Below are positions 4,500 to 43,825 of a stretch of 64,000 nucleotides of DNA, in pieces (positions within the stretch are counted from its first letter, which is position 1; each line of letters begins with the position of its first letter). The notes below the pieces were generated by a model. It was not told the DNA's origin. It made no database searches and saw only the letters and a program-made list of their open reading frames with translations. The position numbers and the translations under genes were made by a program. Source of the DNA: Chitinophagales bacterium (GTDB lineage Bacteria > Bacteroidota > Bacteroidia > Chitinophagales > Chitinophagaceae); assembly GCA_015655015.1 (NCBI GenBank), contig JAATFV010000116.1, positions 1 through 64,000 of the forward strand, read 5' to 3'.

Positions 4500-4535
4500 T
4501 CGCCCTTCCCTTCTATATCGCCCTCCCTTTTTATA
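4500..4535. repeat. 18-bp tandem repeat across a stop codon
   Basis: Copies at 4500-4517 (tcgcccttcccttctata) and 4518-4535 (tcgccctccctttttata). The second contains the TAA stop of the leftward phosphoesterase gene. The first carries a TAG at the matching place. Confidence 0.75.
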
Positions 4536-5775
4536 TAGTCATCTGCCCCACCTGGCGGCCGCCATCGTCCAGCATCTCCAGGTTCAATCTCTTTCTGTCC
4601 GCATTGACCCTGATGATCGTGCGTTTTCCATCCTGTGGCCCGCCACCGATCACGACCGGATAGTTATGCTGGCCTTTCACCGGAGAATGGATGCCATAGA
4701 CATGCGTGTGACCGGAAATCAACAGATCGATCTTCGCCTCATTCAAAATAGTCCCCCAGCTCTCCCGGCAGTGATTGGTGCCGTGCCAGTCCCCGGCATG
4801 GTACAAGGGAATATGGCTGAATACGATCTTATATTTCGCCTTTTTGAAGGCCGGCTTTTCCACCTCTTTTTTCAACCATTCCGCCTGGTGGACCCGGTAA
4901 CGGTCAAAATCCGCCAGCCCGAAGTATTGGGGATGATCGTCATTTTTATCTTCTCCCGAATCAAGCACGATCGCATAGACAGGCCCCCATTGAAAAGAAA
5001 AATAGAACTCCGGGGAGTCGCTGTTAAAATATTCCGGCAGATGACGGGCGAACTTTCCACGCATCTCATGATTGCCGCGGGAAAAAAAGAAAGGAATGCC
5101 GGCAGAGAGGCCGGCAAATGGCGTCAGCAGATGATCGACCAGTTGATCCTCTCCAGTCTGAAAGTCGAACATATCGCCATTCAGGAAGACGAAATCCTTT
5201 TTATCGCCGCCCTGGTATTTCAGCAGAAGCGGAAAGGATTCGGGACGGTCATGGATATCATTGAATATTAAAAACGAAACGCCTTCCCCATGGGGATCAG
5301 GCGTTTCGAAAGAATAAGCGTCGCTCAGATACGTATCTCCATAGGTGACCTGGTAAGGCTGGAAATCTTCCACTTTTTTAGAGCAGATCCGGTAGTAATA
5401 TTTTTGCCCCGGTCCCAGATCATCGATGGTGATGGCATGAACGGTATTATAAGCCTGTACCAGGCCATCGTTAATGGTTTCCGCTTTTTTATCCAGCCGG
5501 TCCTTGCCCGCGCCATACTCTATCCAGCTGAAACAAGGGACATGGGTAAGCCAGCGAACGGTAATCCTGTCGGGAAAGGGCGACTGAAGATAAGGGCCGG
5601 CTTTTAAAATGATATCCCCGGATAAAATGACATCCCGGGAACGCTGACGGTCAGCTCCCCCATCCGATGCCGCAGCCAGAGAATTGGCAGGTCCCAGCCC
5701 TGCCAGTCCCGCCACGCTTAACAAAGAAAGGAATTTTCTGCGGCCCGGTCCCATCCCCTTTACTCTTTTGGTCAT
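4531..5775 (-). CDS. Exported metallophosphoesterase, purple-acid-phosphatase-like
   Basis: A 414-residue calcineurin-like phosphoesterase. All metal-binding blocks are present in order: FNDIHDR, LNGDMFD, SRGNHEMRG, FSHIPLYH and ISGHTHVYG. An N-terminal beta-sandwich of fibronectin/purple-acid-phosphatase type (residues about 55-155, with RITVRWLT and KYYYRI) precedes the catalytic domain. The N-terminus carries GRRKFLSLL followed by a hydrophobic stretch and an Ala-rich end, which looks like a Tat signal; folded, metal-loaded export would suit this enzyme. It is the last gene of the sigma/FecR/SusC/SusD run, so the imported compound may be a phosphate ester. It could be a phosphomonoesterase or phosphodiesterase. 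The substrate is unknown. Confidence 0.85.
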   Translation of the reverse strand: MTKRVKGMGPGRRKFLSLLSVAGLAGLGPANSLAAASDGGADRQRSRDVILSGDIILKAGPYLQSPFPDRITVRWLTHVPCFSWIEYGAGKDRLDKKAETINDGLVQAYNTVHAITIDDLGPGQKYYYRICSKKVEDFQPYQVTYGDTYLSDAYSFETPDPHGEGVSFLIFNDIHDRPESFPLLLKYQGGDKKDFVFLNGDMFDFQTGEDQLVDHLLTPFAGLSAGIPFFFSRGNHEMRGKFARHLPEYFNSDSPEFYFSFQWGPVYAIVLDSGEDKNDDHPQYFGLADFDRYRVHQAEWLKKEVEKPAFKKAKYKIVFSHIPLYHAGDWHGTNHCRESWGTILNEAKIDLLISGHTHVYGIHSPVKGQHNYPVVIGGGPQDGKRTIIRVNADRKRLNLEMLDDGGRQVGQMTI

Positions 5776-5794
5776 ATTATTTAAATTATAGCCA

Positions 5795-5868
5795 TTAATT
5801 ATATCCGTTGTCGAGGAACTTAATTATATCCGTTGTTGAGGAACTTAATTACATTTGCTGTTCCTCCT
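5795..5868. repeat. 25-bp tandem repeat duplicating the 3' end of the SusD gene
   Basis: Copies at 5795-5819 and 5820-5844 differ at one base, and a weaker copy spans 5845-5868. On the minus strand each good copy reads LNNGYN then stop, repeating the actual C-terminus QNNGYN-stop of the adjacent SusD gene (5869 onward). The array is therefore a tandem copy of the last codons and stop, placed after the gene. Confidence 0.85.
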
Positions 5869-7416
5869 TTAATTATACCCGTTATTCTGCGTGAGCTTCG
5901 AATTAAGATCCCTTTCACTCTGGGGGATCGGCCACAAATAAAGCGCATCCGTAAAATGCCAGACATCCAGCTGCTGACCTGTTATATTCCTGATGACCTT
6001 CCCATCCATTAATTGTTTGGCGATACCCCATCTCCGGATGTCGGAATAATAGGTGCCTTCAAAGGCCATTTCTATCCTCCGTTCATGACGGATGAGCTGA
6101 CGCATTCCATCCTGTGTCTGTCCGGCAGCAATAGCAGGCATGCCCACCCCTGCCCTGGCCCTTACCTGGTTGATAGCGTCATACACGGTGGCATCCGGGC
6201 CGCTGACCTCATTTTTTGCCTCCGCATACATTAACAGGACATCGGCATAGCGGAAAACAATAAAATTAAGCGGCGAATCGCCCCAGTTAAAACCATCGAC
6301 CGTGAGGACATGCTTGCGGGGAAGGTAACCGGTATAGCTGGACGCAGAAGTTCCGATCTGGATGCTGTTATAAGGAATATTCCTCCAGGTTGCACCCGGG
6401 CGAACGATCGTATAGTCCATCCGCGGGTCCCTGTTATCATAAGGATTAGCCGGATCATACCCCGATGCCGGGTCCGTGATCGGCAATCCGCTCTTCATCT
6501 CATACGCATCGACAAGATCCTGGGTGGCGAAGATCTGGTCCCAACCTTTGCCGTAAGAGCTAAGCGGTCCCATCAGGCCGTCCAGGGGGCTGCCTTCGCC
6601 CAGTCCGGGGGCCGCATATTGTACGTCGAAGATCACTTCTTTGTTATTCTCTGCGGCTACATTGGTGAACATGCCGGCATAATCGGTATACAGCTGGTAT
6701 TGTCCCAGGTCCATTACCTGTTTGGCCGCGTCGGCAGTTTCCTGGAACTGGTTGTTCAGCAGGTAAGCCCGGGCTTTCAGGGTCAGCGCAGCGCCCTGCG
6801 TGGCCCGGCCGATATCCGATGCACCATAGGTGACCGGAAGGTTTTTGGCGGCCAGATCACACTCGGATACGACATACGCCAGCACTTCTTCCTTTGTATT
6901 ACGTCCGGGCAACGGGGCGCCCAGCTGCAATATCTCCTTGACAAGCGGTACGCCGCCATAATAGTCCACGAGATCGTAATAAAACAGCGCCCGTAAAAAT
7001 CCGGCTTCGGCCAGGAGACGGGCCTTTAAGGTGGCATCCATCGTTATACCGGGGATCTTTGCCATCGCCAGGTTGGCCTTATAGATCCCGTTATACAATT
7101 GCCCCCATTTGTCGCTTACAGGAGTAGCGGTGGTAGGAAGCAGGTTACCTTCTGCAATAGCGGCATAACCATTCTTATACCCGCTCCAGATCCAGCCATT
7201 CGGCGTAATGCCATCCGTCTCCGGCATAAAGGCGTAGATCTGGTAATTATGCTGCATCTGGTAGTAGATGGCCGTAATGCCGGCAAGAGCATCGGCATCC
7301 GTCTGCCAGAAAGTGGCGTCGGAAAGCTGGTCGGAAGGTTTGGTATTCAGATAGTTTTTCGTGCAGCTGCTGACAGCTAAAAAAAATATGGGGAGAACGA
7401 ATAATAGCTTTTTCAT
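5869..7416 (-). CDS. SusD/RagB-family nutrient-binding outer-membrane lipoprotein
   Basis: A 515-residue SusD homologue. The N-terminus is a lipoprotein signal (LPIFFLAVSSC) with the lipidated Cys followed by TKNYLNTKPSDQLSD, the usual SusD start. The N-terminal helical TPR-like part (RLLAEAGFLRALFYYDLVDYYGGVPLV) and the C-terminal segment YADVLLMYAEAKNEV through IRHERRIEMAFEG are classic RagB/SusD blocks. It would cap its SusC barrel on the cell surface and present ligand. It lies 47 bp downstream of the STN-SusC gene and is followed by the phosphatase, all in one direction. Confidence 0.93.
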   Translation of the reverse strand: MKKLLFVLPIFFLAVSSCTKNYLNTKPSDQLSDATFWQTDADALAGITAIYYQMQHNYQIYAFMPETDGITPNGWIWSGYKNGYAAIAEGNLLPTTATPVSDKWGQLYNGIYKANLAMAKIPGITMDATLKARLLAEAGFLRALFYYDLVDYYGGVPLVKEILQLGAPLPGRNTKEEVLAYVVSECDLAAKNLPVTYGASDIGRATQGAALTLKARAYLLNNQFQETADAAKQVMDLGQYQLYTDYAGMFTNVAAENNKEVIFDVQYAAPGLGEGSPLDGLMGPLSSYGKGWDQIFATQDLVDAYEMKSGLPITDPASGYDPANPYDNRDPRMDYTIVRPGATWRNIPYNSIQIGTSASSYTGYLPRKHVLTVDGFNWGDSPLNFIVFRYADVLLMYAEAKNEVSGPDATVYDAINQVRARAGVGMPAIAAGQTQDGMRQLIRHERRIEMAFEGTYYSDIRRWGIAKQLMDGKVIRNITGQQLDVWHFTDALYLWPIPQSERDLNSKLTQNNGYN

Positions 7417-7463
7417 GATTCTACATTTTCTGCAATTAGAAATCGGCCTTTAGAAATTAGCAT

Positions 7464-10400
7464 TTAGAAAGTCGCGTTGATCCCAACCGTCAGTATGCGT
7501 ACGTTGGGGTTTTCCATTTGATAATCCGTATAATTTCCTGTTTCCGGGTCCAGGCCATTGTATTTGGTCCAGGTGAACGGGTTTTGCGCATTGGCATAGA
7601 GCTGCAGGTGCGTACTGTGTATTTTTTGCACCCATCCGGACGGCAGATTATAAGACAGCTGTAAGTTCTTAACCCGTAAGAACGAGCCGTTTTGCACCCA
7701 GAAAGAAGAAGGCTGGGTGTTGTCGCCATTATTATCGGTGGTCAGCCGGGGAATATTGCTGTTCGGGTTCTGAGCCGACCAGGCATTTAGAAAAACAGCA
7801 TTGATCTCTCTTCCCGGCCTTACGCCGCTGGTATACCACAGGTTCTGCAGATACCTGCTGACACCGGATACTCCCTGGAACAGGGCAGACAGCACGAGCC
7901 CCTTATATCCTATCGCCGCGCTGAAACCATACGTGTATTTGGGAATAACGCTTCCCATAAAGACCCTGTCCTTGCCATCGATGACCCCGTCCTTATTGAC
8001 ATCCAGGTATTTTAAGTCGCCGGGTTTATTGGTGCCCGAAAGTTTCTGCTTCGCCCATTTGTCTATTTCTCCCTGGTTCTTAAAGGTCCCCTCTGACTGG
8101 TAACCGAATAAGGCATTGATAGGCAACCCCTGTTTAACGATCGAGTTATTGCCGATGCTCTGGATCACATCGGGATTGCCTTGAAAATACAGGACCTTGT
8201 TGGCGTTATAGCTCAGGTTGCCGCTGATGGAATAGTCGATCTTCCCCGCCTTGTCCTTATAACCCAGCGAGGTCTCCCACCCCTGGTTACGAACAACTCC
8301 CACATTCTGATAAGGAGCCGTCAGGCCTCCATACAAGGTCGACAAAGGCAGCTGTACCAGGATATTGCTCGTCTTGCGGTTGTACCAGTCAAAAGTGAAG
8401 TCCAGCCGCTGTTTGAACAGGGTGATGTCCGCACCGGCATCCGAGGTAGTGGTCGTTTCCCAGGTAATATTCGGGTTGGACAGCGCGGTAGGCGCCAGAC
8501 CGGCATTAAGAGTGTTGCCGAAAATATAGTTCTGCCCGGCGGAGTACAGGTTCAGGTACTGGTATAAACTGATGTTCTGATTGCCCAGCCTGCCCCAGGA
8601 ACCTCTGAACTTGATATCATCCACGAAAGAAAGATCAGCACTTTTGAAAAAGCTATCTTCACTCAATCTCCAGGCGGCAGAGAAAGAGGGAAAGAGCCCC
8701 CAGTGGTGCTCCTCAGCAAAGCGGGATGACCCGTCATACCGGAGGTTGGCTTCCACAATATACTTGCCTTTATAATCGTAGTTGACACGACCGAAGTAAG
8801 AAGAAAGAGCGGATTTGGAAGATGTCCCGGTGACCAGCGGTGTGGACAAGCCGGCATTGAGCTCCCAGGTATTATTGGAGGGAAACCCCTGGATGCTGCC
8901 CGTGAAATAATTGGACTTGTACGATTCCCGGCTGGTGCCCGCCAGGACACTCAAATGATGCCGCTGAGCAAACGTCTTCGTGTAATTAAGCGTAGAGAAA
9001 AAGGTAAGCGACAGACTGTTGTCATTGCGCTCGTTGAGCACGGAAGGAACAGAGGCATTATTCACCGTGATCTGGTTGGTCTGAAAGTTCCAGAGATTCT
9101 GGATCGGCCCCGAAAGCTTGTATTGCTTGCTCTCTTTGTTATAGATTTCGGCGCTCCCGTTGACCTGCCATTTCAGCCCCTTCAACAGGTCCCACTCTCC
9201 ATATAGTTTACCGAAGGAATACTGGCCATTCTGCGGGTAGAACCAGGTATTCATGTACTGTAATGGATTTACCACATTGTTGCTTTCATCGGCCGTATTA
9301 CGTCCGCCATATCGGGTCGTTCCGTTATTTACCATGACGGGAGTGGTTCCGGGGGTGGAATTGGCGCTATAATAGAGCAGTGTGGTAACGTCGAAGGGCT
9401 CTTTCACATCATTCCAGTAAGCGGCAATGTTGCCGCCGATCTTTATCTTATCGTTGATCTTATGGTCCAGGTTGAGCCGCAGGTTATACTTTTTCGCATT
9501 CGTCGTCTTCATGATCCCATTATCCGACAGGAATCCCATAGAGAGATAAAAGTCTGTCCGCTCATTTCCACCGCTTACGGAAAGATTGTGGTTCGTGATA
9601 GAGCCCTGTCCGAAAATGATGGGCAGCCAGTTGGTATTCGGGTAGAGCGTCCTGTCCGTAGCATTCTTCCAGCCATCGATCGTCGCCGGCTTGAAAAGGT
9701 CAGCATTGCCGGGATTGTCCGCCTTATTTATTTGGTTCGTCAATTCCATATACGTTGGATAATCCGTTACCGTTTTGAAAAGGTGGGTGGCATGATTGCT
9801 ACCGGCATACCCGTTATAGTTCACTACCGTTCTGCCATTCTTTCCCCTTTTGGTGGTCACCAGGATGACGCCGTTGGCGGCACGCGAGCCATAGATGGCG
9901 CTGGAAGCTGCATCTTTTAAGATGGAGATGCTGGCCACATCATCGGGATTGAGATTATTTAAAGAGCCTACGATTCCGTCGATGATTATCAGTGGGTCGG
10001 AGCCGTTTAAGGTGCCGACACCCCTGATCCGAAGGACGGCTCCCGTATGTCCCGGCTGGCCGGTCGTCTGCGACACGGAGATTCCGGAAGCCAATCCCGC
10101 AAGCGCATTGGAGACATCGGTGATCGGCCGGTTCTGTAATTCCTCGTCATAATTGACGGACGATACCGATCCGGACAGGTTTACTTTTTTCTGGGTCCCG
10201 TAACCGACAACCACCACCTCATTCAGCTTATTGATCCTTGCCTCCAGGGTGAGATCAAGCTGTGTTCTGCCATGCAGCCTGGTCTCATAAGTCTCCAGGC
10301 TAACGCCGGTAAAAATAAGAAGAGAGTTGGCATCTACATTCGTCAGCGTGAATTCTCCGTTGTCATCAGTAGCCGTCATGTGCTGTCCCCCCTTCACGGA

Positions 10401-10892
10401 AATGGTGATACCGGCAAAGGGTTCTCCTTTTTGATTGACGATCCGCCCATGAACAGTGATAGGAGGCGGAGGCAGGGCAGGGAAAAAAGTAGTGGGCGTG
10501 ATCGCTGTAATGGCAGGTTGTTTGGTGCTGATCACAATAGTGTTGCCCTGGATGGAAAAGCTCAGAGGCTGATCCTTCAGACTTTCTTCCAATGCGGTCA
10601 TTAACGGCGTTTCTTTGAGATTGACGTTGACCCGCTTAGCGTCTGCGAGATCCTGGCTATGATAGAAAAACACATACCCCGTTTGTTTCCGGATAACGGA
10701 AAAGATCTTTTCGAGCCGGACGTTCTTTGCCGCAAACGTCACATTCTGGGAAATGCTCCTGGCAGTCGCCTGAAGCAAGATCACCGTGAGTAAGAGAGAA
10801 GTCATCCTCATAGCTAGCCAAATTTGAGGGGTGATCCCGCAAAAAACGGGACGCCTGGTTGTACTAATAGCTGTACTAATAGTAATTTTCAT
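7464..10892 (-). CDS. SusC/RagA TonB-dependent receptor with N-terminal STN signalling domain
   Basis: A TonB-linked outer-membrane transporter of about 1,142 residues from the ATG at 10892; a TTG 27 bp upstream is in frame but less likely. After the signal peptide (SLLLTVILLQATARS) comes an STN domain (about 60-130: LEKIFSVIRKQTGYVFFY, LSFSIQGNTIVIS). Next come a carboxypeptidase-like regulatory domain (VHGRIVNQKGEPFAGITI), the SusC-type plug (GYGTQKKVNLSGSV, LIIIDGIVG, AASSAIYGSRAANGVILVTTK) and the beta-barrel ending in VGINATF. STN domains talk to FecR-type anti-sigma factors, and exactly such a pair lies upstream. The receptor probably both imports and signals. SusD follows downstream. 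Confidence 0.95.
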   Translation of the reverse strand: MKITISTAISTTRRPVFCGITPQIWLAMRMTSLLLTVILLQATARSISQNVTFAAKNVRLEKIFSVIRKQTGYVFFYHSQDLADAKRVNVNLKETPLMTALEESLKDQPLSFSIQGNTIVISTKQPAITAITPTTFFPALPPPPITVHGRIVNQKGEPFAGITISVKGGQHMTATDDNGEFTLTNVDANSLLIFTGVSLETYETRLHGRTQLDLTLEARINKLNEVVVVGYGTQKKVNLSGSVSSVNYDEELQNRPITDVSNALAGLASGISVSQTTGQPGHTGAVLRIRGVGTLNGSDPLIIIDGIVGSLNNLNPDDVASISILKDAASSAIYGSRAANGVILVTTKRGKNGRTVVNYNGYAGSNHATHLFKTVTDYPTYMELTNQINKADNPGNADLFKPATIDGWKNATDRTLYPNTNWLPIIFGQGSITNHNLSVSGGNERTDFYLSMGFLSDNGIMKTTNAKKYNLRLNLDHKINDKIKIGGNIAAYWNDVKEPFDVTTLLYYSANSTPGTTPVMVNNGTTRYGGRNTADESNNVVNPLQYMNTWFYPQNGQYSFGKLYGEWDLLKGLKWQVNGSAEIYNKESKQYKLSGPIQNLWNFQTNQITVNNASVPSVLNERNDNSLSLTFFSTLNYTKTFAQRHHLSVLAGTSRESYKSNYFTGSIQGFPSNNTWELNAGLSTPLVTGTSSKSALSSYFGRVNYDYKGKYIVEANLRYDGSSRFAEEHHWGLFPSFSAAWRLSEDSFFKSADLSFVDDIKFRGSWGRLGNQNISLYQYLNLYSAGQNYIFGNTLNAGLAPTALSNPNITWETTTTSDAGADITLFKQRLDFTFDWYNRKTSNILVQLPLSTLYGGLTAPYQNVGVVRNQGWETSLGYKDKAGKIDYSISGNLSYNANKVLYFQGNPDVIQSIGNNSIVKQGLPINALFGYQSEGTFKNQGEIDKWAKQKLSGTNKPGDLKYLDVNKDGVIDGKDRVFMGSVIPKYTYGFSAAIGYKGLVLSALFQGVSGVSRYLQNLWYTSGVRPGREINAVFLNAWSAQNPNSNIPRLTTDNNGDNTQPSSFWVQNGSFLRVKNLQLSYNLPSGWVQKIHSTHLQLYANAQNPFTWTKYNGLDPETGNYTDYQMENPNVRILTVGINATF

Positions 10893-11099
10893 ACTTTTGT
10901 TAGTGCTTGGGTTAAACAATAAAGAGTCTTTGCCGATTTTTATAATTGGGGAGCCCGGGCTTTAGCCGTTCCGCCTGACTCGCGGAGCGGTTTTTGCTTT
11001 ATGGGCGCCCTGTGTTAACTATTTATGGACAGCTATTTATGGAAAGCGGACGTTCCGCTTTTACGGACAGATCACGATTTGCGGGCAACTCACACAACT

Positions 11100-11167
11100 C
11101 ACATCTGCAAGCAACCCACATCTGCCAGGACCTCACATCTGCGAGCAACCCACGTTCTGCGAGTTCC
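11100..11167. repeat. 17-bp tandem repeat between FecR and SusC genes
   Basis: Four degenerate copies of cacatctgcaagcaacc at 11100-11116, 11117-11133, 11134-11150 and 11151-11167. The array begins 7 bp downstream of the FecR stop codon. The rest of the gap to the SusC start (10893-11099) holds no gene that I can see. Confidence 0.8.
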
Positions 11168-11174
11168 TTCCGTT

Positions 11175-12458
11175 TTACTGAAATATGACGATCCGCTTAT
11201 CTTCCTCGATCCTGAAATGCACCCTTGCCTGTTCCAGTACTTTTAAGACCTGTGCCAGGGAGAGGTTGCGCCCGATCTCGCCTTTAAAATCCTGCCAGTC
11301 GGGAATGGGTCCGCTATATTTTACTTCTACATCATACCAGCGTGCGAGCTGCCGCATCACCGTCCGGATGTCCGCATTATCGAAATTAAAAACCCCGTTC
11401 TTCCAGGCTATGGCATCCTCTACATTTGCTTCCCCAACGCTGATCCTGTCCATCCCTGCCCTGTTGCGAAAAACAGCCGCCTGCTGTCCGGGGACGATAC
11501 GTACTTTGCCGGATGAATTACTCACGCTGACCGATCCTTCCAGCAGGGTGGTCTTTAACGCCGGTTCGTCTTCATAGGAATTGATGTTGAAATGAGTGCC
11601 CAGGACAGTGACGTCTTCCTTATCCGTTCTCACGACAAACGGTTTGGCCGCATTATGAGCCACCTCGAAGTAAGCTTCTCCCGTCATTTCCACGAGTCGT
11701 TGTTTGCCGCCGTTAAAGGAGGTGGGATAACTGAGAGAGGAGGAGGAATTGAGCCATACTTTCGTTCCGTCCGGCAGGGTGATCTGGAATTGTTTTCCTT
11801 TGCCGGTAGATAAGGTGTTGCGTAAAATTTCCGGGTTATTCCCGGCCTGTGCGAGACCGTTGCTTCCCTGTGCCGGATCATTGCTTCCATGTGCCGGATC
11901 ATTATTACCCCGGATGAGGTAAGCCACTCCCCCACCCGCCTGTTTCACTACCTGTGTATTGCCCTGTTGCGTGACCATACCATTGCCGATACTGTCCAGG
12001 GTGATCTTCGAACCGTCCGCCAGCTGCAGGACGGCGCCATTGGTGCCGGGAGCTACATCATTTTTAAAGGACCGGGCTTTTACCAACGGGACGTTGTGCT
12101 CTTTTCTAACGGCCAAAAATATCCCCCCTCCGATCAGCAGAATGAGGACCGCCGCCGCTGCCAGCCACCGCCGGAGCCTTACAATCTTATATTCCATTGC
12201 GCTGGCCTGCTTAAATTTTGTTGTTTGGGCCTGCCTGTGTTCTGCTGTTTTAGCCTGCATGCGTATATTCGACAGCATCTTTTCCCGCCGTTTGCCGTCG
12301 GTAAAGCCGGTGTGTTTTTCTTCAAAGCCGGACTCCCGGATAAGCTGTTCGTCCAGCAAAGCCGAATTCCCCTCCACCAGGGCAAAAAATTCTGCCAGCT
12401 CGCTTTCACTTAAGGAGTCCTGGAGGTATCCGTTTAACAATTCGTTGAATCTGGACAT
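11175..12458 (-). CDS. FecR-family anti-sigma factor
   Basis: A 427-residue inner-membrane anti-sigma factor. It has a cytoplasmic N-terminal helical segment (FNELLNGYLQDSLSESEL) and a single membrane helix near residues 99-117 (WLAAAAVLILLIGGGIF). The periplasmic FecR domain (ITLPDGTKVWLNSSSSLSYP, VEMTGEAYFEVAHNAAKPF, VLGTHFNINSY) is followed by the C-terminal DUF4974/STN-like domain (FNFDNADIRTVMRQLARWYD to RIVIFQ). It would hold the adjacent ECF sigma factor until the STN-SusC receptor signals. Between membrane helix and FecR core, at about residues 184-208, there is a Gly/Asn/Pro-rich insert of near-identical heptads (GSNDPA-type) encoded by a 21-bp DNA repeat, which I would not expect in a typical member. 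Confidence 0.92.
   Translation of the reverse strand: MSRFNELLNGYLQDSLSESELAEFFALVEGNSALLDEQLIRESGFEEKHTGFTDGKRREKMLSNIRMQAKTAEHRQAQTTKFKQASAMEYKIVRLRRWLAAAAVLILLIGGGIFLAVRKEHNVPLVKARSFKNDVAPGTNGAVLQLADGSKITLDSIGNGMVTQQGNTQVVKQAGGGVAYLIRGNNDPAHGSNDPAQGSNGLAQAGNNPEILRNTLSTGKGKQFQITLPDGTKVWLNSSSSLSYPTSFNGGKQRLVEMTGEAYFEVAHNAAKPFVVRTDKEDVTVLGTHFNINSYEDEPALKTTLLEGSVSVSNSSGKVRIVPGQQAAVFRNRAGMDRISVGEANVEDAIAWKNGVFNFDNADIRTVMRQLARWYDVEVKYSGPIPDWQDFKGEIGRNLSLAQVLKVLEQARVHFRIEEDKRIVIFQ
11837..11901. repeat. 21-bp in-frame tandem repeat in the FecR gene
   Basis: Two near-identical 21-bp copies at 11860-11880 and 11881-11901 (one mismatch), flanked by a degenerate copy at about 11837-11859. They are read in the FecR frame as repeated NDPAHGS/NDPAQGS heptads. 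The period is a multiple of three, so the frame is kept. Confidence 0.85.
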
Positions 12459-12546
12459 GTTAGGATAGATTTCTTTTGGGCTGTCAGATTGTGCGCCGGC
12501 TTAAAGACGACCAATAAGACTGCCTGTACCAGTTGAAAAGAAAAAA

Positions 12547-13158: not shown

Positions 13159-13165
13159 TATTCCG

Positions 13166-13173
13166 CAAAACTA
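13166..13173 (-). promoter_or_regulatory. Possible -7 box for the ECF sigma gene
   Basis: The minus strand reads TAGTTTTG, a perfect TAnnTTTG Bacteroidota -7 element, with its last base 8 nt before the sigma ATG. That would give a very short leader. I find no convincing -33 TTG at the usual distance. Confidence 0.35.
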
Positions 13174-20077: not shown

Positions 20078-20134
20078 TGTTGTAGTTTAAACATAATGTA
20101 ATAAAGTCTTATCCCGGCTTACCCCGATCAGAAA

Positions 20135-20186
20135 TCACCCCGGATAATCCCGAACAGAAGTCATCACGGACAATCCCGAACAGAAG
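20135..20186. repeat. 26-bp tandem repeat next to the cupin stop codon
   Basis: Copies at 20135-20160 and 20161-20186, identical except near the left end. A degenerate third copy (20187 onward) is the 3' end of the leftward cupin gene itself, with GATGA/GGATGA at the stop in each. The array lies between the cupin and MDR genes. Confidence 0.8.
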
Positions 20187-20687
20187 TCATCCCAGGTAAT
20201 CAGGGGGAAAAAGCTTCTGCCCGTACTTTTCAACGATCGGCTGCATTTTTTTCATGGCCGCCTCGTCCATCGGCGGAGGGGAAAGGAACGATCCAACGGC
20301 AACCGGTTGGCCTATCTCCACGAAAAAGTCCTCCAGGCCGGAAGGAACAACCAGGCAAAGAAGGTGCGCTGTCTGATTGGTCTTATTCTTAAAGCAATGC
20401 ACAATGCCGCCTTTCGGAATACTGACAAAGGATCCCTTTTTAGCAGTATACGTCGACACTTCCGACTTCACCTCGATCTCTCCATCGATAACATAAAAGG
20501 ATTCCTGGAAATTCGCATGTGAATGAGGGCCTGGTCCACCGCCGGGAGGGATGAGCATATCAATGGCGGCAAAGGCGCCCCCCGTCTCTTTACCGGTGAT
20601 AAGAATGCGGTAGGTATCTCCGACGACCGACAGATTCTGTCCACCCTGCGGTCCTAATGTAATGGGGGGTACTTTTGAACTTTCCAT
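20187..20687 (-). CDS. Single-domain cupin protein
   Basis: A 166-residue cupin. Motif 1 is seen as GPGPHSHANFQESFYVIDGEIEV, with two His and the Glu able to bind a metal. Motif 2 is VSIPKGGIVHCFKN, with the third His. No signal peptide is present, so it should be cytoplasmic. Small stand-alone cupins of this type include dioxygenases, isomerases and ligand sensors, and the sequence does not say which. It is the first gene of the leftward set with MDR, OYE and AraC genes, although the 110-bp repeat-bearing gap to MDR makes joint transcription less certain. Confidence 0.85.
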   Translation of the reverse strand: MESSKVPPITLGPQGGQNLSVVGDTYRILITGKETGGAFAAIDMLIPPGGGPGPHSHANFQESFYVIDGEIEVKSEVSTYTAKKGSFVSIPKGGIVHCFKNKTNQTAHLLCLVVPSGLEDFFVEIGQPVAVGSFLSPPPMDEAAMKKMQPIVEKYGQKLFPPDYLG

Positions 20688-20853
20688 CCTGCGGGATCAT
20701 TTAATGAATAGTAAAGTTCGCGGAGTTGGATGGAGTAAAATAACCTGATGGGACGTAAAAATAGTCTGATCCGACGCAATTCAAGGCAACGCTAAAATCA
20801 CGTTTTGTCCGCTAAGATGGCCCTGGCGCACAATTTTCGTCGGTACGAAAGCA

Positions 20854-28010: not shown

Positions 28011-30713
28011 ATGTTAAAAAATAGCTTCGCCAGCCTTACTATAATAGTGTTCCTGTCCCCATTGTTTTGCCCCCCTTCGAGGGCGCAGGCAGTTCAGGGC
28101 GGCTCCGGACGTTATGAACCAGGCCTGTTAAGCATGCAGCATGTGGAGACATTGCCTTTTCTATACGTAAATGGGACCACCACCAGGCAGTTCGATGCCT
28201 ATGATCCCAGCGGCGGCAATATGGATGGATCGTTTACCAATTCCTATACAAGATATATCGACAAAAATGGAGAGTATGTCATATTTGATGCTTCAGGCCC
28301 CGGATGCCTCTACCGTCAACAGTTCAATATATGGTGCATGGGGATGTTTATGGGAGCGGAGAAAGCACACATCAAGTTTTATTTTGACAAGGAAGAAAAG
28401 CCCAGGATCGACCTCGCAGTAAATGATCTGTTTAACGGCAACACATCCCCCTTCTTAAAGCCATACGCCCACTTTGATTCAAGCGCAAAAGACGGAAGGC
28501 CCCTCTATGCAAATCTTTACTACCCCCTGTCGTTCAAAAAAGGTCTAAAGATCACCACTACCGATAACTTCAATAAATTATTGGAAGGCGCCAACCTGGA
28601 CGTTCGTACATACAATGCAGCCTGGTATCAGTATACCTATATTACCTTCCCGACAGATGCCGGCGTAAAGAGCTGGAATAATGATCCCCCTGACGATGTT
28701 TACAGCAGCATCGCCGGAAAATGGGCCGACCATGCCGATCCCAAGCCATCAGAAAATAATATTCCGGTTTCCAGCTCGATGGCTATACCTGCCGGCACTA
28801 CCCGAACGATAGCGGATCTGTCAGGCGAGGGCTCCATATCCCAAATTCAGCTCCACCTGGAGAATTATAGCCGTACCCTTTTTTTTCATACCCGTATCCG
28901 CATCTTCTGGGATGGTGCTGCCACTCCCGCCGTTGACATGCCCCTTGCGAATTTCTTTGGAGGCGGGGGAGAGAACTACAAAGACTGCCAGGATATCCAT
29001 ACGAAATCCCTGCACACGCTTTTATTTGGATTCGATGGCCGGACGCATGACTTTTATTCCTATTGGCCGATGCCCTACTGGAAATCCGCCCGTATAGAAT
29101 TAAGGAATGAAAGTAATGACAACATCGATAATCTTACCGTCAATATCGAATACACACCAGGAAAGGCCTACCCATATCCCATTGAAAGATCAGGTTATTT
29201 CTATGCCAAACGCACCGTATCCCGGGACGCGGGACACGATCTTTTTGCCAATGCATTCCGGGAAAAGGGTCATGGCCATGTCGCAGGAATTTCATTCTAC
29301 TCGGACGGGTACGCCATGGACGGCGATGAATTTACGTACATCGATGGCAGCCATACTCCGCAAATTCACGGCAACGGCACAGAGGACGACCATGACCAGG
29401 GCTGGGGCGGAGTCCCTTACCAGGCGCCCCTCTGGGGCGGCCTCGTCAATGGCTACCAGGGAGCTTACCGGTTATACCTCAATGACTCCTATATTTTTAA
29501 TAAGGATATCAAGATCAACTACGAATTCTCCATGGAAGGCGGCGAAGATTACGGCGGGGAAGTGGATGCCGTAGTATTTTATTATAAATCACCCTCCACG
29601 GAGAACCTTAGACTCAGTGACGTGCTGGACGTAGGCGCTGCGGCATCGGAAAAGGCCCATAAATATGTGATTGAGGGGAAAAAATGGGCGTTTACCAGCA
29701 CCAGCGGTTACGATGCCTATGAACGCAACTATGAATACGATGTGGTCAGGGATAACGGGTATGCATATGATAAGTATACCGGGTTTACCGCCTCCATTGA
29801 CCCGGCCAACGAAGGGATCAGGCTTCGCAGGCGAATATACCGCTCCGGTAACGGGATACAGCATGCCAACGTCTACATCGACGGAGTGCTGGTAAAGGAA
29901 CGTACATGGGATATCTGTACCTTATCCTCCGCCCCTTTCTACCAGGCATGGTTCGACGATGACTTTGAAATACCCTCCTCCTATACAAAAGGAAGATCTT
30001 CCATACGGATAAAAGTGGAGTTTCGAAAGGACGACGGCAGCAGGAATGAGATCAACGAGTTTTACTACTGGGTATATTCTTATGGCAAGGCAGGCAGAAA
30101 GCCCGGCCAAACCCGGCAGGATACTATCCCCGGCTACAACCGGCCGGACAAACATTACATTCCCGCCACGCGCGAAAGGATAAAAGCAACACGCTGCGCC
30201 TTTTTGCGAACTGATACCTCCACATTAGGCGACTGGACAGAAACATACGGTCATGAAGGCTTCATCCTGCCTCAATATTTTTACGGCCGCAATCTGCAGG
30301 TAACACCCGGCTATTTATCACATCTCACCTATGGGAACATGAAAGGACACCAGTTTTCAACCTTTAATACATCTACTCCCTCTTCCCTCCATCCAAATCC
30401 TCTCAATTATGACAAACGATATCTCGGAGGAGTAGAAACCGCCTCCGTCGATTCAATCGAATTATACGTGACCGATACCCGCCCTCACCAGCTGGCCATG
30501 TATTTTTGCGACTTTGATAAAAAAGGGAGAAAGCAGGACATCGAAATATTTAATTTTAACGGAGACCCTATCGTTGCGAAACAGGAGCTGTCGCATTTTG
30601 AAAAAGGCAAGTGGCTGCTTTACAGCTTTTCAGGAAGTATACGGATCCGGATCTCCAATCGGAATGAACAAACAACGGCTGTACTCTCCGCTCTTATGTT
30701 CGATAATTATTGA
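28011..30713 (+). CDS. GH172 (DUF2961) family glycoside hydrolase, exported
   Basis: A 900-residue protein with a signal peptide (NSFASLTIIVFLSPLFCPPSRAQ). The DUF2961/GH172 core is visible at about 55-390: an N-terminal DPSGGNMDGSFTNSYTRYI, GPGCLYRQQFN, then the second jelly-roll with IRIFWDGAATPAVDMPLANFF, the SYWPMPYWKSARIELRNES block, and GNGTEDDHDQGWGG-type acidic segments. Family members cleave or form fructofuranoside and arabinofuranoside linkages. At 900 residues it is about twice the core length, and the extra C-terminal half (beta-rich, with YIDGVLVKERTWDI and VDSIELYVTD) probably adds binding modules. It diverges from the SusC/SusD/glycosidase unit across copy A of the shared element, so the two sides are probably co-regulated. 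Confidence 0.85.
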   Translation: MLKNSFASLTIIVFLSPLFCPPSRAQAVQGGSGRYEPGLLSMQHVETLPFLYVNGTTTRQFDAYDPSGGNMDGSFTNSYTRYIDKNGEYVIFDASGPGCLYRQQFNIWCMGMFMGAEKAHIKFYFDKEEKPRIDLAVNDLFNGNTSPFLKPYAHFDSSAKDGRPLYANLYYPLSFKKGLKITTTDNFNKLLEGANLDVRTYNAAWYQYTYITFPTDAGVKSWNNDPPDDVYSSIAGKWADHADPKPSENNIPVSSSMAIPAGTTRTIADLSGEGSISQIQLHLENYSRTLFFHTRIRIFWDGAATPAVDMPLANFFGGGGENYKDCQDIHTKSLHTLLFGFDGRTHDFYSYWPMPYWKSARIELRNESNDNIDNLTVNIEYTPGKAYPYPIERSGYFYAKRTVSRDAGHDLFANAFREKGHGHVAGISFYSDGYAMDGDEFTYIDGSHTPQIHGNGTEDDHDQGWGGVPYQAPLWGGLVNGYQGAYRLYLNDSYIFNKDIKINYEFSMEGGEDYGGEVDAVVFYYKSPSTENLRLSDVLDVGAAASEKAHKYVIEGKKWAFTSTSGYDAYERNYEYDVVRDNGYAYDKYTGFTASIDPANEGIRLRRRIYRSGNGIQHANVYIDGVLVKERTWDICTLSSAPFYQAWFDDDFEIPSSYTKGRSSIRIKVEFRKDDGSRNEINEFYYWVYSYGKAGRKPGQTRQDTIPGYNRPDKHYIPATRERIKATRCAFLRTDTSTLGDWTETYGHEGFILPQYFYGRNLQVTPGYLSHLTYGNMKGHQFSTFNTSTPSSLHPNPLNYDKRYLGGVETASVDSIELYVTDTRPHQLAMYFCDFDKKGRKQDIEIFNFNGDPIVAKQELSHFEKGKWLLYSFSGSIRIRISNRNEQTTAVLSALMFDNY

Positions 30714-30746
30714 GCGTCCTTATGGAATTATTGAGCATCCTTATGG
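30705..30746. repeat. 21-bp tandem repeat holding two convergent stop codons
   Basis: Two copies (30705-30725 and 30726-30746) differ at one base. The GH172 stop TGA is in the first copy and the TAA of the convergent PhyH-like gene is in the second. Confidence 0.9.
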
Positions 30747-31558
30747 ATCCGGTCCTTCCCGCTAAAATCCGTATTCTCTTCGATGCCTTTCAGATCCCAT
30801 TCCAGTAAGGCTTCATCAGGAACAGCTTCAATAGGGGTCGAGCAGGATGCGGCAATATCCGTATAGGGGATATTACGGCTTCTGTTATAACAGGAGATCA
30901 ACGACCACCTGGCTTTATCAGACAAATTCGCTTCTGACCGGTGAAGCAGGTTACTGTGAAAGAAAAGAGCATCCCCGGCTTTTATTTCCACATATTCAAG
31001 ATCCAGGGTTTTAAGGGCCAGCTCTACATAATGCATATTGGCGCCTACCTGCTCCCCGGCAAAACCATGCTCGATCCGCCCCATTTTATGAGACCCCCTT
31101 ATCACCTGCAGACACCCGTTCTCCTTATTGGCATCCGTAATCGCTACCATCACCGATATCAGCTGGTCGGGAAAAAGAAATTCGTCCTTATACCAGTAGC
31201 CATAATCCTGGTGCCACTCCCAGGCTCCCCCTACACGGGGCTCCTTCTGCATAAGCTTGCTGTGGAAATGACAAACGGCCGAATCCCCGTCCAGCAATTT
31301 GTCCACCGTATCGATTATTCTTTTACTTTTCGTGAGCAATCCATATGCATCATTCCCCGGCGTATACCATAAGGTGAGCTTCGTCTTTTTTCCGGAAGCA
31401 TCATTCAGGTCCATCGCATGCGAACGCATCTTTTTATCGGAAAGGACAATGGAAGAAAGTTTCGCTATCTCTTCCTCAGATAGGAAATTCTTTACGATGA
31501 AATAACCGTCTCTTTGGAAATCACTGATCTCCTGCGGCGAGATTTTAAAATAAGACAT
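30728..31558 (-). CDS. Phytanoyl-CoA dioxygenase (PhyH) family Fe(II)/2-oxoglutarate oxygenase
   Basis: A 276-residue cytoplasmic oxygenase. The Fe-binding facial triad is visible as HQD (about 116-118, in EWHQDYGYW) and the distal His of SNLLHRSEAN (about 206), with an Arg following that could bind 2-oxoglutarate. Other family blocks are QRDGYFIVKNFL, NGCLQVIRGSHKMG and GDALFFHS. It would hydroxylate or otherwise oxidise a small organic substrate. It is the last gene of the leftward uptake run, after the esterase/propeller fusion, so its substrate is probably a released aglycone or sugar derivative; that is inference. Confidence 0.9.
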   Translation of the reverse strand: MSYFKISPQEISDFQRDGYFIVKNFLSEEEIAKLSSIVLSDKKMRSHAMDLNDASGKKTKLTLWYTPGNDAYGLLTKSKRIIDTVDKLLDGDSAVCHFHSKLMQKEPRVGGAWEWHQDYGYWYKDEFLFPDQLISVMVAITDANKENGCLQVIRGSHKMGRIEHGFAGEQVGANMHYVELALKTLDLEYVEIKAGDALFFHSNLLHRSEANLSDKARWSLISCYNRSRNIPYTDIAASCSTPIEAVPDEALLEWDLKGIEENTDFSGKDRIHKDAQ

Positions 31559-31575
31559 ACATGCAGATTTATATA

Positions 31576-31639
31576 AGTTAAAAGATACTACAGATTAAAG
31601 ATGCACTACAGATATTACAGATTATAAGATATACTACAG
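31576..31639. repeat. 18-19-bp tandem repeat across the stop of the esterase fusion gene
   Basis: Units ending in actacag at 31576-31593, 31594-31611 and 31621-31639, with a half unit at 31612-31620. On the minus strand each full unit starts CTGTAG, and the one at 31621-31639 is the gene's own last codon and stop. Confidence 0.75.
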
Positions 31640-34600: not shown

Positions 34601-35101
34601 ACAAGACGACCAGCTGCCTCCAAGGTCTGACTGGGGTGTATAGGAAAGGCACCTTTTAACCGTGAATAACCGGATAGAAGGGTACCAGGCGCCGGACACC
34701 TCCTTCTTTGCGTCCTTCACCGGGGAATTATCCGCGTCTTGCAACGACATTTGCATGTTAGACTGGCCCGAACATACCCACACCTCCCCGATGAGCACCC
34801 CTTTCAGCACGACGGTGTCCTCTCCCCCGATGACCAGCTCATAAGGACCTCCCGCGGCAGGAGTAGCAATAGCGACCATCCATTTGCCATCCTGACCCGT
34901 CGTTGCCCCCTCCATGACCGCCTTCGGCCAGCTGCCCTTCACCCACACCTTCTCTCCCGGTGATGCCCATCCCCAGACAGGGACGGCCATCGACCGCTGC
35001 AGCACCATGCTGTCGGTCAGGACAGCCGGCAGCTTTATTTTTGCCGATACGGTCCAATACGATCCGGTAAAGACAATTAAGAAAAAGAGCATTTTTTTCA
35101 T
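31634..35101 (-). CDS. Sialate O-acetylesterase-like domain fused to a five-bladed-propeller glycosidase-like domain
   Basis: A 1,155-residue exported protein. The N-terminal about 400 residues are a SGNH-type sialate O-acetylesterase: DSMVLQRSMAVPVWG jelly-roll start, catalytic Ser in CSGQSNMQMS (about 114), ISSNWGGT, GVIWYQGESNVG, and the His in NIHPANK. A linker with two different tandem repeats follows (about 413-437 and 502-522). Next is a propeller of the GH32/GH43 type (about 545-900), with FKDPQKGSWYLYIGEY, KSDDRGTTWKLIGD, EAPDVMIVYAGHQYHMIFDF and GRYSRVYAPMII. A C-terminal pair of jelly-rolls follows, with SLVWDLHTP and VAVDSFLL. A single protein could thus remove acyl groups and cut a glycosidic bond. 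It follows SusD and precedes PhyH on one strand. Confidence 0.85.
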   Translation of the reverse strand: MKKMLFFLIVFTGSYWTVSAKIKLPAVLTDSMVLQRSMAVPVWGWASPGEKVWVKGSWPKAVMEGATTGQDGKWMVAIATPAAGGPYELVIGGEDTVVLKGVLIGEVWVCSGQSNMQMSLQDADNSPVKDAKKEVSGAWYPSIRLFTVKRCLSYTPQSDLGGSWSSCTPGSAASFSAAAYFFGRELAQKLKVPIGLISSNWGGTVAEAWTSADALRRLPDFDPALKKADSLRQQSAGDQRYDIMAVKPAGALDYSPNTPSVLYNAMIAPLIPFAIRGVIWYQGESNVGRAAQYEKLFPLMITDWRTRWKEGDFPFYFVQIAPFRYLGDSTAAAALRDAQRKTMTLPNTGMAVTSDIGDTNNIHPANKREVGRRLALWALACTYGKKGFDYSGPLYESVQVRDHALLVSFAHAGGGLTTHGGLTIQDGLTTNEGLTTHSGELAGFEIAGADGRFVPAKAAILGNQVIVHSDAVTDPVSVRYDWYATATASLFNQAGLPAPSFSSGTTADTAAGTTAGTAANATANGKRIAGVRNNYAAISHKNDWTHHYALGSPSWDAFERFPGNPVFKGRKGMEWPVNGFLFKDPQKGSWYLYIGEYRENYRAEPGSATKDMNCVIYKSDDRGTTWKLIGDLFKANQPAYDSLEIEAPDVMIVYAGHQYHMIFDFVSSKDTWANMNQSGIGYAVSDNPEGPFVISRKPVRMNTDYQSRPLEGRYSRVYAPMIIKRKNDWVLLHMMDSPPGWALAMATASRPEGPYGESKLVLHVENKTSYPALQEFFPAFFDDQYVYLPATSVAMNRNYQSVFRVRPDDLGDPEKYETFAAGGFWHSVNLPDEHSGIWGQTISGLIDRDTLYVMYPSRDLRNYGTINLAKAPWPGIYKENGFRLGANAGKSFSYIKRPVRLRELQMDFTLDGTLSLVWDLHTPIDIRDGWGKFDLERNARHKQLQISSKGWALLIGDSINGLLSKSSGQWTSWNEGNHKLHIEKKGGGYLFSLNGELFWQGALAEDPGPVGIYLDENSHVAVDSFLLTGERVEGKVTVGFYDALVTSGDKDSSWSFVNTPDFIYGRGAVSKHSGAFAKWNFEGSAIQLFLPRGPSFGKVNIFLDGKLVKVLSLNSPAWIKSSVLFETGNLSGGKHALYLQAVGGLLPLDCIRVSL
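33535..33594. repeat. 12-bp in-frame tandem repeat
   Basis: Five degenerate copies of ccgctgtacctg at 33535-33546, -33558, -33570, -33582 and -33594. They are read on the minus strand as an Ala/Thr/Gly-rich linker between the esterase and propeller domains. Confidence 0.8.
33791..33862. repeat. 18-bp in-frame tandem repeat
   Basis: Four copies of gttagtcgtcagcccatc (shared core tcgtcagccc) at 33791-33808, 33809-33826, 33827-33844 and 33845-33862. They encode GLTTHG-like hexapeptides at about residues 413-437 of the esterase fusion. Confidence 0.9.
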
Positions 35102-36743: not shown

Positions 36744-36767
36744 ATGCTTGATTTTTAATTGGACAAA

Positions 36768-39809: not shown

Positions 39810-39915
39810 AACCAAGCAGTTTACAATTGAAAAAATAAAATCGTTCCTGTAATAATTTCAACAGGCATTCATAGGCTGGTTATTTGATCTGAACGAATGT
39901 AGAATAAGGAACAAG

Positions 39916-39958
39916 CTTTAAAAACTACTCGTTTTTCTAATTAAGACACTATTTTTGC
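39916..39958. promoter_or_regulatory. Copy C (core only) of the shared upstream element
   Basis: 31 of 43 positions match the core at 27778-27820 without gaps, including ttaaaaac, tttttc and gacact then tttgc. It overlaps the last codons of the aldolase gene and lies just upstream of the SusC gene. It contains TATTTTTG, a perfect TAnnTTTG, facing right. Confidence 0.6.
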
Positions 39959-40795: not shown

Positions 40796-40798
40796 AAT

Positions 40799-42244: not shown

Positions 42245-42268
42245 AATTTCCTGTTTTAAATTTTAGGG

Positions 42269-43660
42269 TTAATGATGATATCCGAATTCCTTCTCCACCT
42301 CGGTAATGGCATCCTCGATCATATCCATTCCCTGTGCCGCATATTGCTCATCCATGATCAGCGGCGGGGACATCCGGAGGATATGACCGGCAGGGATCCA
42401 CGCAAGCCCCTTTCTGAACGCCTTTTGATATACCAGCTTACCGGCCTCGGCAAAAGGCTCCTTTGTCTTTTTATCCTTCACCAGCTCGATCCCCAATAAA
42501 AATCCCTTCCCTTTGACATCTCCGATAATCGGATGCTCTTCTTTCATCTTCAGCATCCGCCGCATGAAATAATCCCCGACCGTACGCACGTTCTGCAGGA
42601 TATTCTCTTCTTCGATCACTTCGATGGAAGCCAGAGCCGCCGCACAGGCCATCGGGTTCCCCCCATAGCTGGACGAAGCCGATATCTTCTCCAGAGCCTC
42701 CCCATTCTCTTCACTGACCACCATAGCGGTGACCGGGAATCCATTGCCGAAAGATTTTCCAAAAGTGACAATATCCGGAATGACGCCCCAGTGGTTCAGT
42801 GTAAGCCACTCGCCCGTACGGCCCATCCCCGCCAATACCTCATCATCGTATAACAGTATCTTATACTTTTCGCAGAGCGCCTTGAGCTTCGGAAAAAAGT
42901 CCTCCGGCGGAAAAATACTGCCGGCCCATCCCTGTGCAGGCTCCAGTACAAAAGCGGCTACATTTCCCACCGTTGCCTCAATGATGAAATTTTCATAAAA
43001 CCGGATATAGGCGTCCGTGTCGATCACCCCTTCCGGAGTAGTCCAGAGAGGCCGGTAAGGGTCAGGCCTGGGCACCATATAGAATCCCGCCGCCCGCGTC
43101 GGTCCGTAACTGAAAGTCTCTCCCCGGTACATCTGGGCGCAGCTCACCGCCCCCAGCGTCTTGCCGTGAAAGTCACGGTAAGCGGAAATGAACTCATGTC
43201 GTCCCGAAATAGCCCGTGCCGCCCGGATAGCGGCTTCTACCGCAGTCGTACCGTCGGAATACAGCTGGATCGCATTCAGCTTCCCCGGTAAAATATCCGC
43301 CATTTTCTCCATGAGCTTTTCCTTGACAGGCGTAGTAAAATCATGGGCATTCATCAGCTTCTTAGCCCAGTAGCTGATGGCCTCCGATATTTTCGGATGG
43401 CAATGACCTAAGGAAGTGACATAAATACCTGATGAAAAATCAAGGTATTTATTCCCATCCACATCCGTCAGCGTTATGCCAGACCCTTCCTCGAACGCAA
43501 CAGGGAATAATTTCACCTGCGAACTGAGCCCCTTCATATATTTGGCCGTATTGGCATGCATAACCCTGGATTTCGGGCCGGGTATGTCTGTGACCAGGCG
43601 CGGAATACCAGCCGCCGCCTCCTTCCACCAATCGATGGATAATTCCATTGACTTATTCAT
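42269..43660 (-). CDS. Class III PLP-dependent aminotransferase
   Basis: A 463-residue fold-type I aminotransferase. The PLP-binding Lys is in TFGKSFGNGFP (about K302). The preceding Asp block is LLYDDEVLAGMGRTGEW, where members commonly read DEVQTG. Also present are LYSDGTTAVEAAIRAARA, YRDFHGKTLGAVS and FVLEPAQGWAG. Class III enzymes act on the omega-amino group of amino acids, polyamines or amino sugars, or epimerise them. It lies in a run with the isomerase, PfkB kinase, ceramidase-like hydrolase and aldolase, so removing an amine from a sugar-derived substrate is the likely job. The 166-bp gap to the upstream kinase is filled by a 21-bp repeat array. Confidence 0.88.
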   Translation of the reverse strand: MNKSMELSIDWWKEAAAGIPRLVTDIPGPKSRVMHANTAKYMKGLSSQVKLFPVAFEEGSGITLTDVDGNKYLDFSSGIYVTSLGHCHPKISEAISYWAKKLMNAHDFTTPVKEKLMEKMADILPGKLNAIQLYSDGTTAVEAAIRAARAISGRHEFISAYRDFHGKTLGAVSCAQMYRGETFSYGPTRAAGFYMVPRPDPYRPLWTTPEGVIDTDAYIRFYENFIIEATVGNVAAFVLEPAQGWAGSIFPPEDFFPKLKALCEKYKILLYDDEVLAGMGRTGEWLTLNHWGVIPDIVTFGKSFGNGFPVTAMVVSEENGEALEKISASSSYGGNPMACAAALASIEVIEEENILQNVRTVGDYFMRRMLKMKEEHPIIGDVKGKGFLLGIELVKDKKTKEPFAEAGKLVYQKAFRKGLAWIPAGHILRMSPPLIMDEQYAAQGMDMIEDAITEVEKEFGYHH

Positions 43661-43700
43661 ATTTAAGTTTTATACAAATTTTATAACTCATACACCCTCT

Positions 43701-43825
43701 CAACCGGACCTGCTGTCTCTCGGATCAGTCCACCAATCACTCCGATCAGTCCTCCAATCACTCCAATCAGTCCTCCAATAGCTCCGACCGGACCTCCAAT
43801 AGCTCCGACCGGACCTGCGGCCGTC
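43701..43825. repeat. 21-bp tandem repeat array, six units
   Basis: Units at 43701-43720 (partial), 43721-43741, 43742-43762, 43763-43783, 43784-43804 and 43805-43825. They grade from one end to the other, so neighbours are most alike. The array begins 1 bp after the PfkB stop codon and fills the gap to the aminotransferase gene. Confidence 0.92.

What the first reader, a model, noticed from the sequence alone, without database searches (positions are those of the whole stretch)
4500..43825. Unrelated tandem repeats placed at gene 3' ends, with copies carrying the stop codon
Seen directly: five short tandem arrays of different sequence and period each include the stop codon and last codons of the gene they follow: 4500-4535 (18 bp, phosphoesterase), 5795-5868 (25 bp, SusD, copies read LNNGYN-stop), 20135-20189 (26 bp, cupin), 30705-30746 (21 bp, GH172 and PhyH), 31576-31639 (18-19 bp, esterase fusion). 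Three more start 1-11 bp after a stop (2952-2989, 11100-11167, 43701-43825). Because each array is a copy of its own gene end, they are not a mobile element. Inference: a local duplication process acts at gene ends in this genome, perhaps linked to transcription termination or to repair slippage there. I know of no described element with this rule.
Basis: partly seen in the sequence, partly recalled or inferred. Interest (0 to 1): 0.75.

Follow-up and report, generated by a model that had tools for sequence, protein, structure and literature searches.

The report
Tandem duplications tolerated at gene ends
This bacterium carries unusually many short tandem duplications between its genes, and they gather at gene ends most likely because a duplication there does little harm, not because something targets gene ends.

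Summary
The arrays are real: window spacers give 10 arrays against 0-2 in 20 shuffles. A 1,214 kb sample of the 8.1 Mb draft holds 138 noncoding arrays (1.05 per noncoding kb); 122 have periods of 9-28 bp and their units are almost all mutually unrelated. Most sampled same-genus genomes have far fewer, e.g. G007 0 in 13.8 kb, though G046 looks similarly rich.

The 3' bias is real but moderate: 67 of 95 arrays lie nearer the stop than the next start, and 30 of 138 contain a whole stop codon. A neutral model largely reproduces it: duplications fall evenly, are lost within about 20 bp of a start, and are harmless over a stop because the first copy keeps it. No gene-end-directed process is needed.

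Fresh two-copy duplications mostly lack flanking repeats, which argues against classical slippage and fits fill-in of staggered breaks plus end joining. Ku and LigD are present, but also in array-poor relatives, so this step is inference. Modest interest: probably a lineage-specific mutational bias, not a new element.

The parts
2849..2946 (.). 14-bp tandem array, 5.3 copies, in the spacer between 268-2811(-) and 3001-3327(-)
   Evidence: TRF; 54 bp after the stop
2952..2989 (.). 19-bp perfect two-copy duplication, no flanking homology (m=0), 11 bp after the stop
4499..4536 (-). 18-bp array containing the stop codon of the calcineurin-like phosphoesterase gene 4531-5775(-)
   Evidence: gene: Pfam Metallophos
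5795..5868 (-). 25-bp array after the SusD gene 5869-7416(-); copies read LNNGYN-stop, the gene end itself looks like a diverged copy
   Evidence: TRF 5795-5851; rest by eye; gene: Pfam SusD_RagB
7432..7470 (-). 14-bp array over the stop of the SusC-like TonB-dependent receptor gene 7464-10805(-); the orthologous junction in G007 has a 13-bp spacer, here 47 bp
10860..10882 (.). 12-bp array in a long spacer, not at a stop
11019..11047 (.). 14-bp array, 127 bp from the stop
11095..11163 (.). 17-bp array, 4 copies, 11 bp after the stop of 11175-12458(-)
20111..20201 (-). 26-bp array containing the stop of the cupin gene 20187-20687(-)
   Evidence: gene: Pfam Cupin_2
20737..20776 (.). 21-bp array in the next spacer, 77 bp from the nearest stop
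30705..30747 (.).
   Evidence: pre-duplication state inferred
31581..31639 (-). 27-bp (18-bp sub-period) array containing the stop of the SASA-type esterase gene 31634-35101(-)
43719..43808 (.). 21-bp array, 4.3 copies, 18 bp after the stop of 43827-44966(-)

Best explanation
This lineage produces, or keeps, short (about 10-25 bp) tandem duplications at a raised rate anywhere in its genome. They persist in intergenic DNA, then diverge and sometimes expand. Selection removes most that fall in coding DNA (unless in frame) or just upstream of start codons. A duplication that covers a stop codon leaves the protein unchanged because the first copy still ends it, so gene 3' ends collect arrays passively. 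The most likely molecular step (inferred) is fill-in of a staggered break, made by two offset nicks on opposite strands, followed by end joining; this copies the overhang once and needs no pre-existing repeat. Further copies can then arise by ordinary slippage within the array.
For: Excess: 138 noncoding arrays in 131.5 kb of noncoding DNA, on 54 of 61 pieces, window included; spacers alone 106 against 8-18 in five shuffles. Units almost all unrelated. Low in several same-genus genomes: G007 0 in 13.8 kb, G002+G009+G014 5 in 24.9 kb; E. coli K-12 1 in 8.6 kb. Neutral model with 20 bp excluded before starts, n = 96: 30 (95% 25-37) over a stop, observed 26; 47 (40-54) within 20 bp, observed 50; 69 (61-76) nearer the stop, observed 67. 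Coding arrays: 93 of 106 have periods divisible by 3, against 51 of 138 noncoding. Of 18 isolated perfect two-copy duplications 10 have zero and 4 one base of flanking homology; a no-homology null expects 54% and 28%. Best ungapped adjacent-copy identity runs from 100% (25 arrays) to under 75% (10 arrays), as if generation continues. At the SusC/SusD junction the spacer is 13 bp in G007 and 47 bp here, with the stop at the corresponding place. Ku, the LigD polymerase domain and MutS are present.
Against: Ku and LigD are also present in array-poor relatives (G007, G002, G009, G014), so their presence does not explain the difference; G021 lacks both in these searches and still has 12 arrays in 33.9 kb. 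The 18 duplications as a set have mean flanking homology 1.33, above the null 0.77 (P = 0.037); two of them (m = 6 and 8) lie in 54-bp-period arrays, and without them, a post hoc step, the mean is 0.63 (P = 0.72 against the null). The 20-bp exclusion is a chosen value: 0 bp underpredicts the within-20 count (41, 34-48, observed 50) and the nearer-stop count (56, 47-65, observed 67); 40 bp overpredicts the over-stop count (38, 32-44, observed 26) and the nearer-stop count (78, 71-84). With the most lenient start rule the 20-bp model also slightly overpredicts the over-stop count (32, 27-38, observed 26). The 26 over a stop include 4 that overlap it by under 3 bp. Only 26-29 of 46 E. coli starts were called exactly, so start-side distances are blurred. 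A higher birth rate was not separated from slower loss.
Confidence: 0.65

Rival explanations
1. Replication slippage: the first copy arises when the polymerase slips between short direct repeats that already flank the unit.
For: Standard account of bacterial tandem repeats; a paper on lake genomes invokes it for Planctomycetota intergenic repeats (PMC9426551, passages). The m = 4, 6 and 8 cases fit it, and the mean of all 18 is above the no-homology null (P = 0.037).
Against: 10 of 18 isolated perfect duplications have zero and 4 one base of homology, close to what random positions give. By itself it does not explain why this genome is rich and G007 poor.
Confidence: 0.22
2. One reading: a duplication process targeted to gene 3' ends, linked to transcription termination or repair there.
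For: Array coverage peaks at about 10% 40-60 bp after stops, versus 3-8% in the 240 bp upstream of starts; 50 of 96 within 20 bp of a stop versus 34.4 by random placement.
Against: Divergent spacers without any stop also carry arrays (22 in 30.5 kb). Even placement with loss near starts fits, and where it misfits it predicts more, not fewer, arrays over stops. No extra folding and fewer T-runs at array-bearing gene ends.
Confidence: 0.08
3. The arrays are functional and selected, for example for mRNA stability or termination.
For: They lie in 3' flanks that are probably transcribed (inference).
Against: Units share almost no sequence and gene ends with arrays are not more structured. The SusC/SusD junction exists in G007 without an array, though that is one case.
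Confidence: 0.04
4. Assembly artefact or contamination.
For: Draft of 259 contigs, 5.85% contamination.
Against: Copies mostly differ by substitutions; arrays occur on 54 of 61 pieces, and a second genome, G046, looks similar.
Confidence: 0.03

Closest known systems
Small tandem duplications made by fill-in and NHEJ in mammalian cells (Schimmel et al. 2021, PMC8355091; abstract and introduction read)
   Same: Short (<100 bp) head-to-tail duplications attributed to fill-in at breaks with complementary overhangs, without need of a pre-existing repeat
   Different: Shown there by experiment with CRISPR/Cas9-made breaks, Ku80 and Pol alpha-primase; here inferred from sequence only, in a bacterium whose Ku and LigD are shared by array-poor relatives
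Intergenic tandem repeats / minisatellites of bacteria (Planctomycetota in PMC9426551, passages; pattern survey PMC4060949, passages)
   Same: Intergenic tandem copies whose abundance differs between genomes
   Different: Strain variation is untested here; the first step seems not to need flanking repeats
TAACTGA direct repeats of Beggiatoaceae (PMC4679880, listing and passages)
   Same: Intergenic repeats, some overlapping the upstream stop codon; the authors note that insertions in coding sequence succeed mainly at the periphery of proteins
   Different: One shared 7-bp unit there; almost all unrelated units, mostly 9-28 bp, here
REP extragenic palindromes (features recalled; PMC3733652 seen only in the listing)
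   Same: Extragenic, often after genes
   Different: REPs share palindromic sequence families; these units share almost none

Membership tests
Bacterial intergenic tandem repeats (minisatellite/VNTR kind) | Head-to-tail copies of a unit of roughly 9-100 bp | tested here: met
   TRF
Bacterial intergenic tandem repeats (minisatellite/VNTR kind) | Copy number varies between strains (VNTR) | not testable with these tools
   Only one genome per species is held
Fill-in/end-joining tandem duplications | No flanking homology needed at the duplication | tested here: inconclusive
   10 of 18 m=0 and 4 of 18 m=1, near the null, but the mean of all 18 is above it (P=0.037); without two cases inside longer arrays P=0.72
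Fill-in/end-joining tandem duplications | Dependence on Ku and ligase/polymerase | not testable with these tools
   Genes present; no mutant data; presence does not track array density
REP or MITE-like dispersed repeats | Shared sequence between copies at different loci | tested here: not met
   3 of 9,453 unit pairs share an 11-mer
Intrinsic terminators | Stable hairpin followed by a T-run after the stop | tested here: not met
   As a group: no more folding (p=0.25) and TTTT in 24% versus 43% of gene ends (67 versus 445); single arrays not tested
Heptad-type short repeats | 7-8 bp units | tested here: not met
   No noncoding G000 array has a period under 9; 7-8 bp units are common in G015 instead

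The most novel reading that the evidence does not exclude
Some species of this genus are tandem-duplication mutators: a lineage-specific change in break repair makes 10-25 bp homology-free duplications by fill-in end joining, a bacterial counterpart of the eukaryotic small-tandem-duplication pathway, and steadily lengthens intergenic DNA.
Probability: 0.25. Interest if true: 0.6.

Novelty: new member of a known kind. Interest (0 to 1): 0.35.

Why it matters
It shows how a striking positional rule (arrays carrying stop codons) can follow largely from tolerance, with a simple quantitative null for other genomes. The contrast between array-rich (G000, probably G046) and array-poor species of one genus would let the source of small tandem duplications in bacteria be mapped to a genetic difference.

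Tried and rejected
Loss of the PolA 5'-3' exonuclease (a route to tandem duplications recalled from E. coli polA work): rejected, the domain is present in G000 and 37 of 39 genomes searched. Presence or absence of Ku, LigD or MutS: does not separate rich from poor genomes. Motif at duplication borders: none evident by eye in 14 cases. Terminator role: no extra folding. Shared repeat family: rejected. Synteny with G007: only four neighbouring genes (SusD, SusC and the next two) are in orthologous order in the 80 kb compared, so only the SusC/SusD junction could be read base by base; the next spacer, with three arrays, is 369 bp here and 236 bp in G007, and the one after, without arrays, 88 and 74 bp. 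Paper searches answered. In their listings I saw no title or abstract start that describes stop-spanning arrays with unrelated units, but most listed papers were not opened and the library is partial.

Counting rules. Genes come from my own hexamer caller: 44 of 46 E. coli stops and 26-29 of 46 starts exact. The caller was retrained per data set, so noncoding kb for the same stretches differ slightly. 134 of 138 noncoding arrays fell in a spacer class, 4 did not. Perfect duplications: 27 noncoding, 18 after dropping those inside arrays of 2.6 or more copies or with homology of at least half the period.
Full report
WHAT IS THERE. The window is contig 248 (bases 1-64000) of an 8.1 Mb draft genome, probably a Bacteroidota (SusC/SusD pair; no name was obtained). 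Four of the five said to carry the stop contain a whole stop codon by TRF. The SusD case is a 25-bp array starting 17 bp downstream by TRF, with the gene's last codons as a likely diverged copy by eye. A further array over the SusC stop (7432-7470) was missed, and so were four arrays not adjoining a stop: 2849-2946, 10860-10882, 11019-11047 and 20737-20776. Window spacers alone give 10 arrays, against 0-2 in 20 dinucleotide shuffles.

GENOME-WIDE. I sampled 60 further stretches, giving 1,214 kb with the window, and called genes with a hexamer scorer. There are 138 noncoding arrays in 131.5 kb of noncoding DNA (1.05 per kb) and 106 coding arrays (0.098 per kb). Scanning spacers alone gives 106 arrays against 8-18 in five shuffles. 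Noncoding arrays occur on 54 of 61 pieces, window included. 122 of 138 have periods of 9-28 bp; the median copy number is 2.2.

RELATIVES. Densities in 24 same-genus genomes and one of the same order are uneven, and most samples are small (11-240 kb each). Noncoding arrays per noncoding kb, low or nil: G007 0 in 13.8, G002 1 in 9.2, G009 2 in 7.1, G014 2 in 10.2, G004 0 in 2.0, G022 0 in 1.9, G006 0 in 0.6, G010 0 in 2.8, G012 1 in 5.4, G013 1 in 4.2, G008 1 in 2.7, G011 1 in 3.2, G017 1 in 2.9, G024 (same order) 1 in 3.5, G044 0 in 1.9. Intermediate: G019 4 in 10.5 and G021 12 in 33.9. High: G046 10 in 6.0, with varied 11-26 bp units, from two stretches of one contig, none of its 5 codirectional arrays over a stop and its two perfect duplications with 3 and 9 bases of homology; G015 33 in 28.0, but largely 7-8 bp units and their doubles, none over a stop in codirectional spacers. 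Two small pools were not split: G039+G040 2 in 1.4 (both arrays in G040) and G041+G043+G045+G047 5 in 8.0 (all in G043, 7-8 bp or 14 bp units). E. coli K-12 gave 1 in 8.6. By the conserved PolA exonuclease domain, G011 (91%) and G002 (90%) are nearer to G000 than G046 (85%) is, so richness does not simply follow kinship.

POSITION. In codirectional spacers 67 of 95 arrays (one tie left out) are nearer the upstream stop than the downstream start (binomial p = 8e-5). 26 of 96 overlap a stop (22 by 3 bp or more) and 11 a start, and 50 of 96 lie within 20 bp of or over the stop, against 34.4 in random placement (0 of 2000 simulations). Convergent, codirectional and divergent spacers hold 1.12, 1.20 and 0.72 arrays per kb. 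I then tested a neutral-tolerance model: the unit falls evenly, may begin inside the gene provided it runs at least 3 bp past the stop, and may not fall within s bp before the start. With s = 20 it predicts 30 (95% 25-37) over stops against 26 observed, 47 (40-54) within 20 bp against 50, and 69 (61-76) nearer the stop against 67. With s = 0, within-20 (41, 34-48) and nearer-stop (56, 47-65) are underpredicted. With s = 40, over-stop (38, 32-44) and nearer-stop (78, 71-84) are overpredicted, and s = 60 is worse. Under two other start-calling rules the s = 20 model fits similarly, except that the over-stop count falls at (26 in 26-38) or just below (26 against 27-38) its range. Where the model misses, it expects more arrays over stops than are seen, the opposite of targeting.

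SELECTION. 93 of 106 coding arrays have a period divisible by three, against 51 of 138 noncoding ones, as expected if duplications arise without regard to genes and are filtered afterwards.

ORIGIN. Perfect two-copy duplications show how new arrays start. Of 27 in noncoding DNA, 18 remain after removing those in larger arrays or with long overlap. Ten of the 18 have no flanking homology, four have one base, and the others have 2, 4, 6 and 8. Random placement without homology predicts 54%, 28%, 11% and so on. The mean of the 18 (1.33) exceeds the null mean (0.77, P = 0.037), driven by the 6 and 8, which sit inside 54-bp-period arrays; without them, a post hoc step, the mean is 0.63 and P = 0.72. 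I read this as mostly homology-free duplication. A known homology-free route is fill-in of complementary overhangs and end joining, as shown in mammalian cells (PMC8355091, abstract and introduction). The genome has Ku, a 951-aa open frame with the LigD polymerase domain, and MutS, and a mycobacterial LigD is described as having primase and gap-filling activity (PMC1378119, passage). Relatives with few arrays have these genes too, so what makes this lineage different is not known.

FOSSILS. At the SusC/SusD junction the ortholog in G007 (73-74% protein identity) has a 13-bp spacer; here it is 47 bp, largely filled by a 14-bp array whose first copy ends SusC at the corresponding place. At the convergent 28134-30713/PhyH ends each 21-bp copy holds both stops. 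Collapsing it to one copy would make the genes overlap by 7 bp, where they are now 14 bp apart (inference).

VERDICT. The more interesting residue is a lineage-specific, mostly homology-free excess of small tandem duplications.

Noticed in passing
G015 loci L093-L094, L105-L114; G043 L175: Intergenic arrays largely built on 7-8 bp units and their doubles, a different repeat class from the window's genome.
   Followed up: partly
window 28011-30713: DUF2961 (GH172-type) gene; the only three relatives found by the pattern scan of genome contigs were Pirellulaceae, Pirellulales and Verrucomicrobia MAGs at 45-51% identity, perhaps a transferred gene; records near the window may be left out.
   Followed up: no
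window 33546-33592 and 33792-33860: Coding arrays (12/24 bp and 18 bp, both multiples of 3) inside the 31634-35101 gene.
   Followed up: no
window 1-55: 18-bp coding array at the window edge.
   Followed up: no
L133 1609: A perfect 12-bp duplication with no flanking homology lies just upstream of the Ku gene (1634-2410).
   Followed up: no
L066 17211-17500: A 104-bp tandem array of 2.8 copies starting 2 bp after a stop, much longer than the rest.
   Followed up: no
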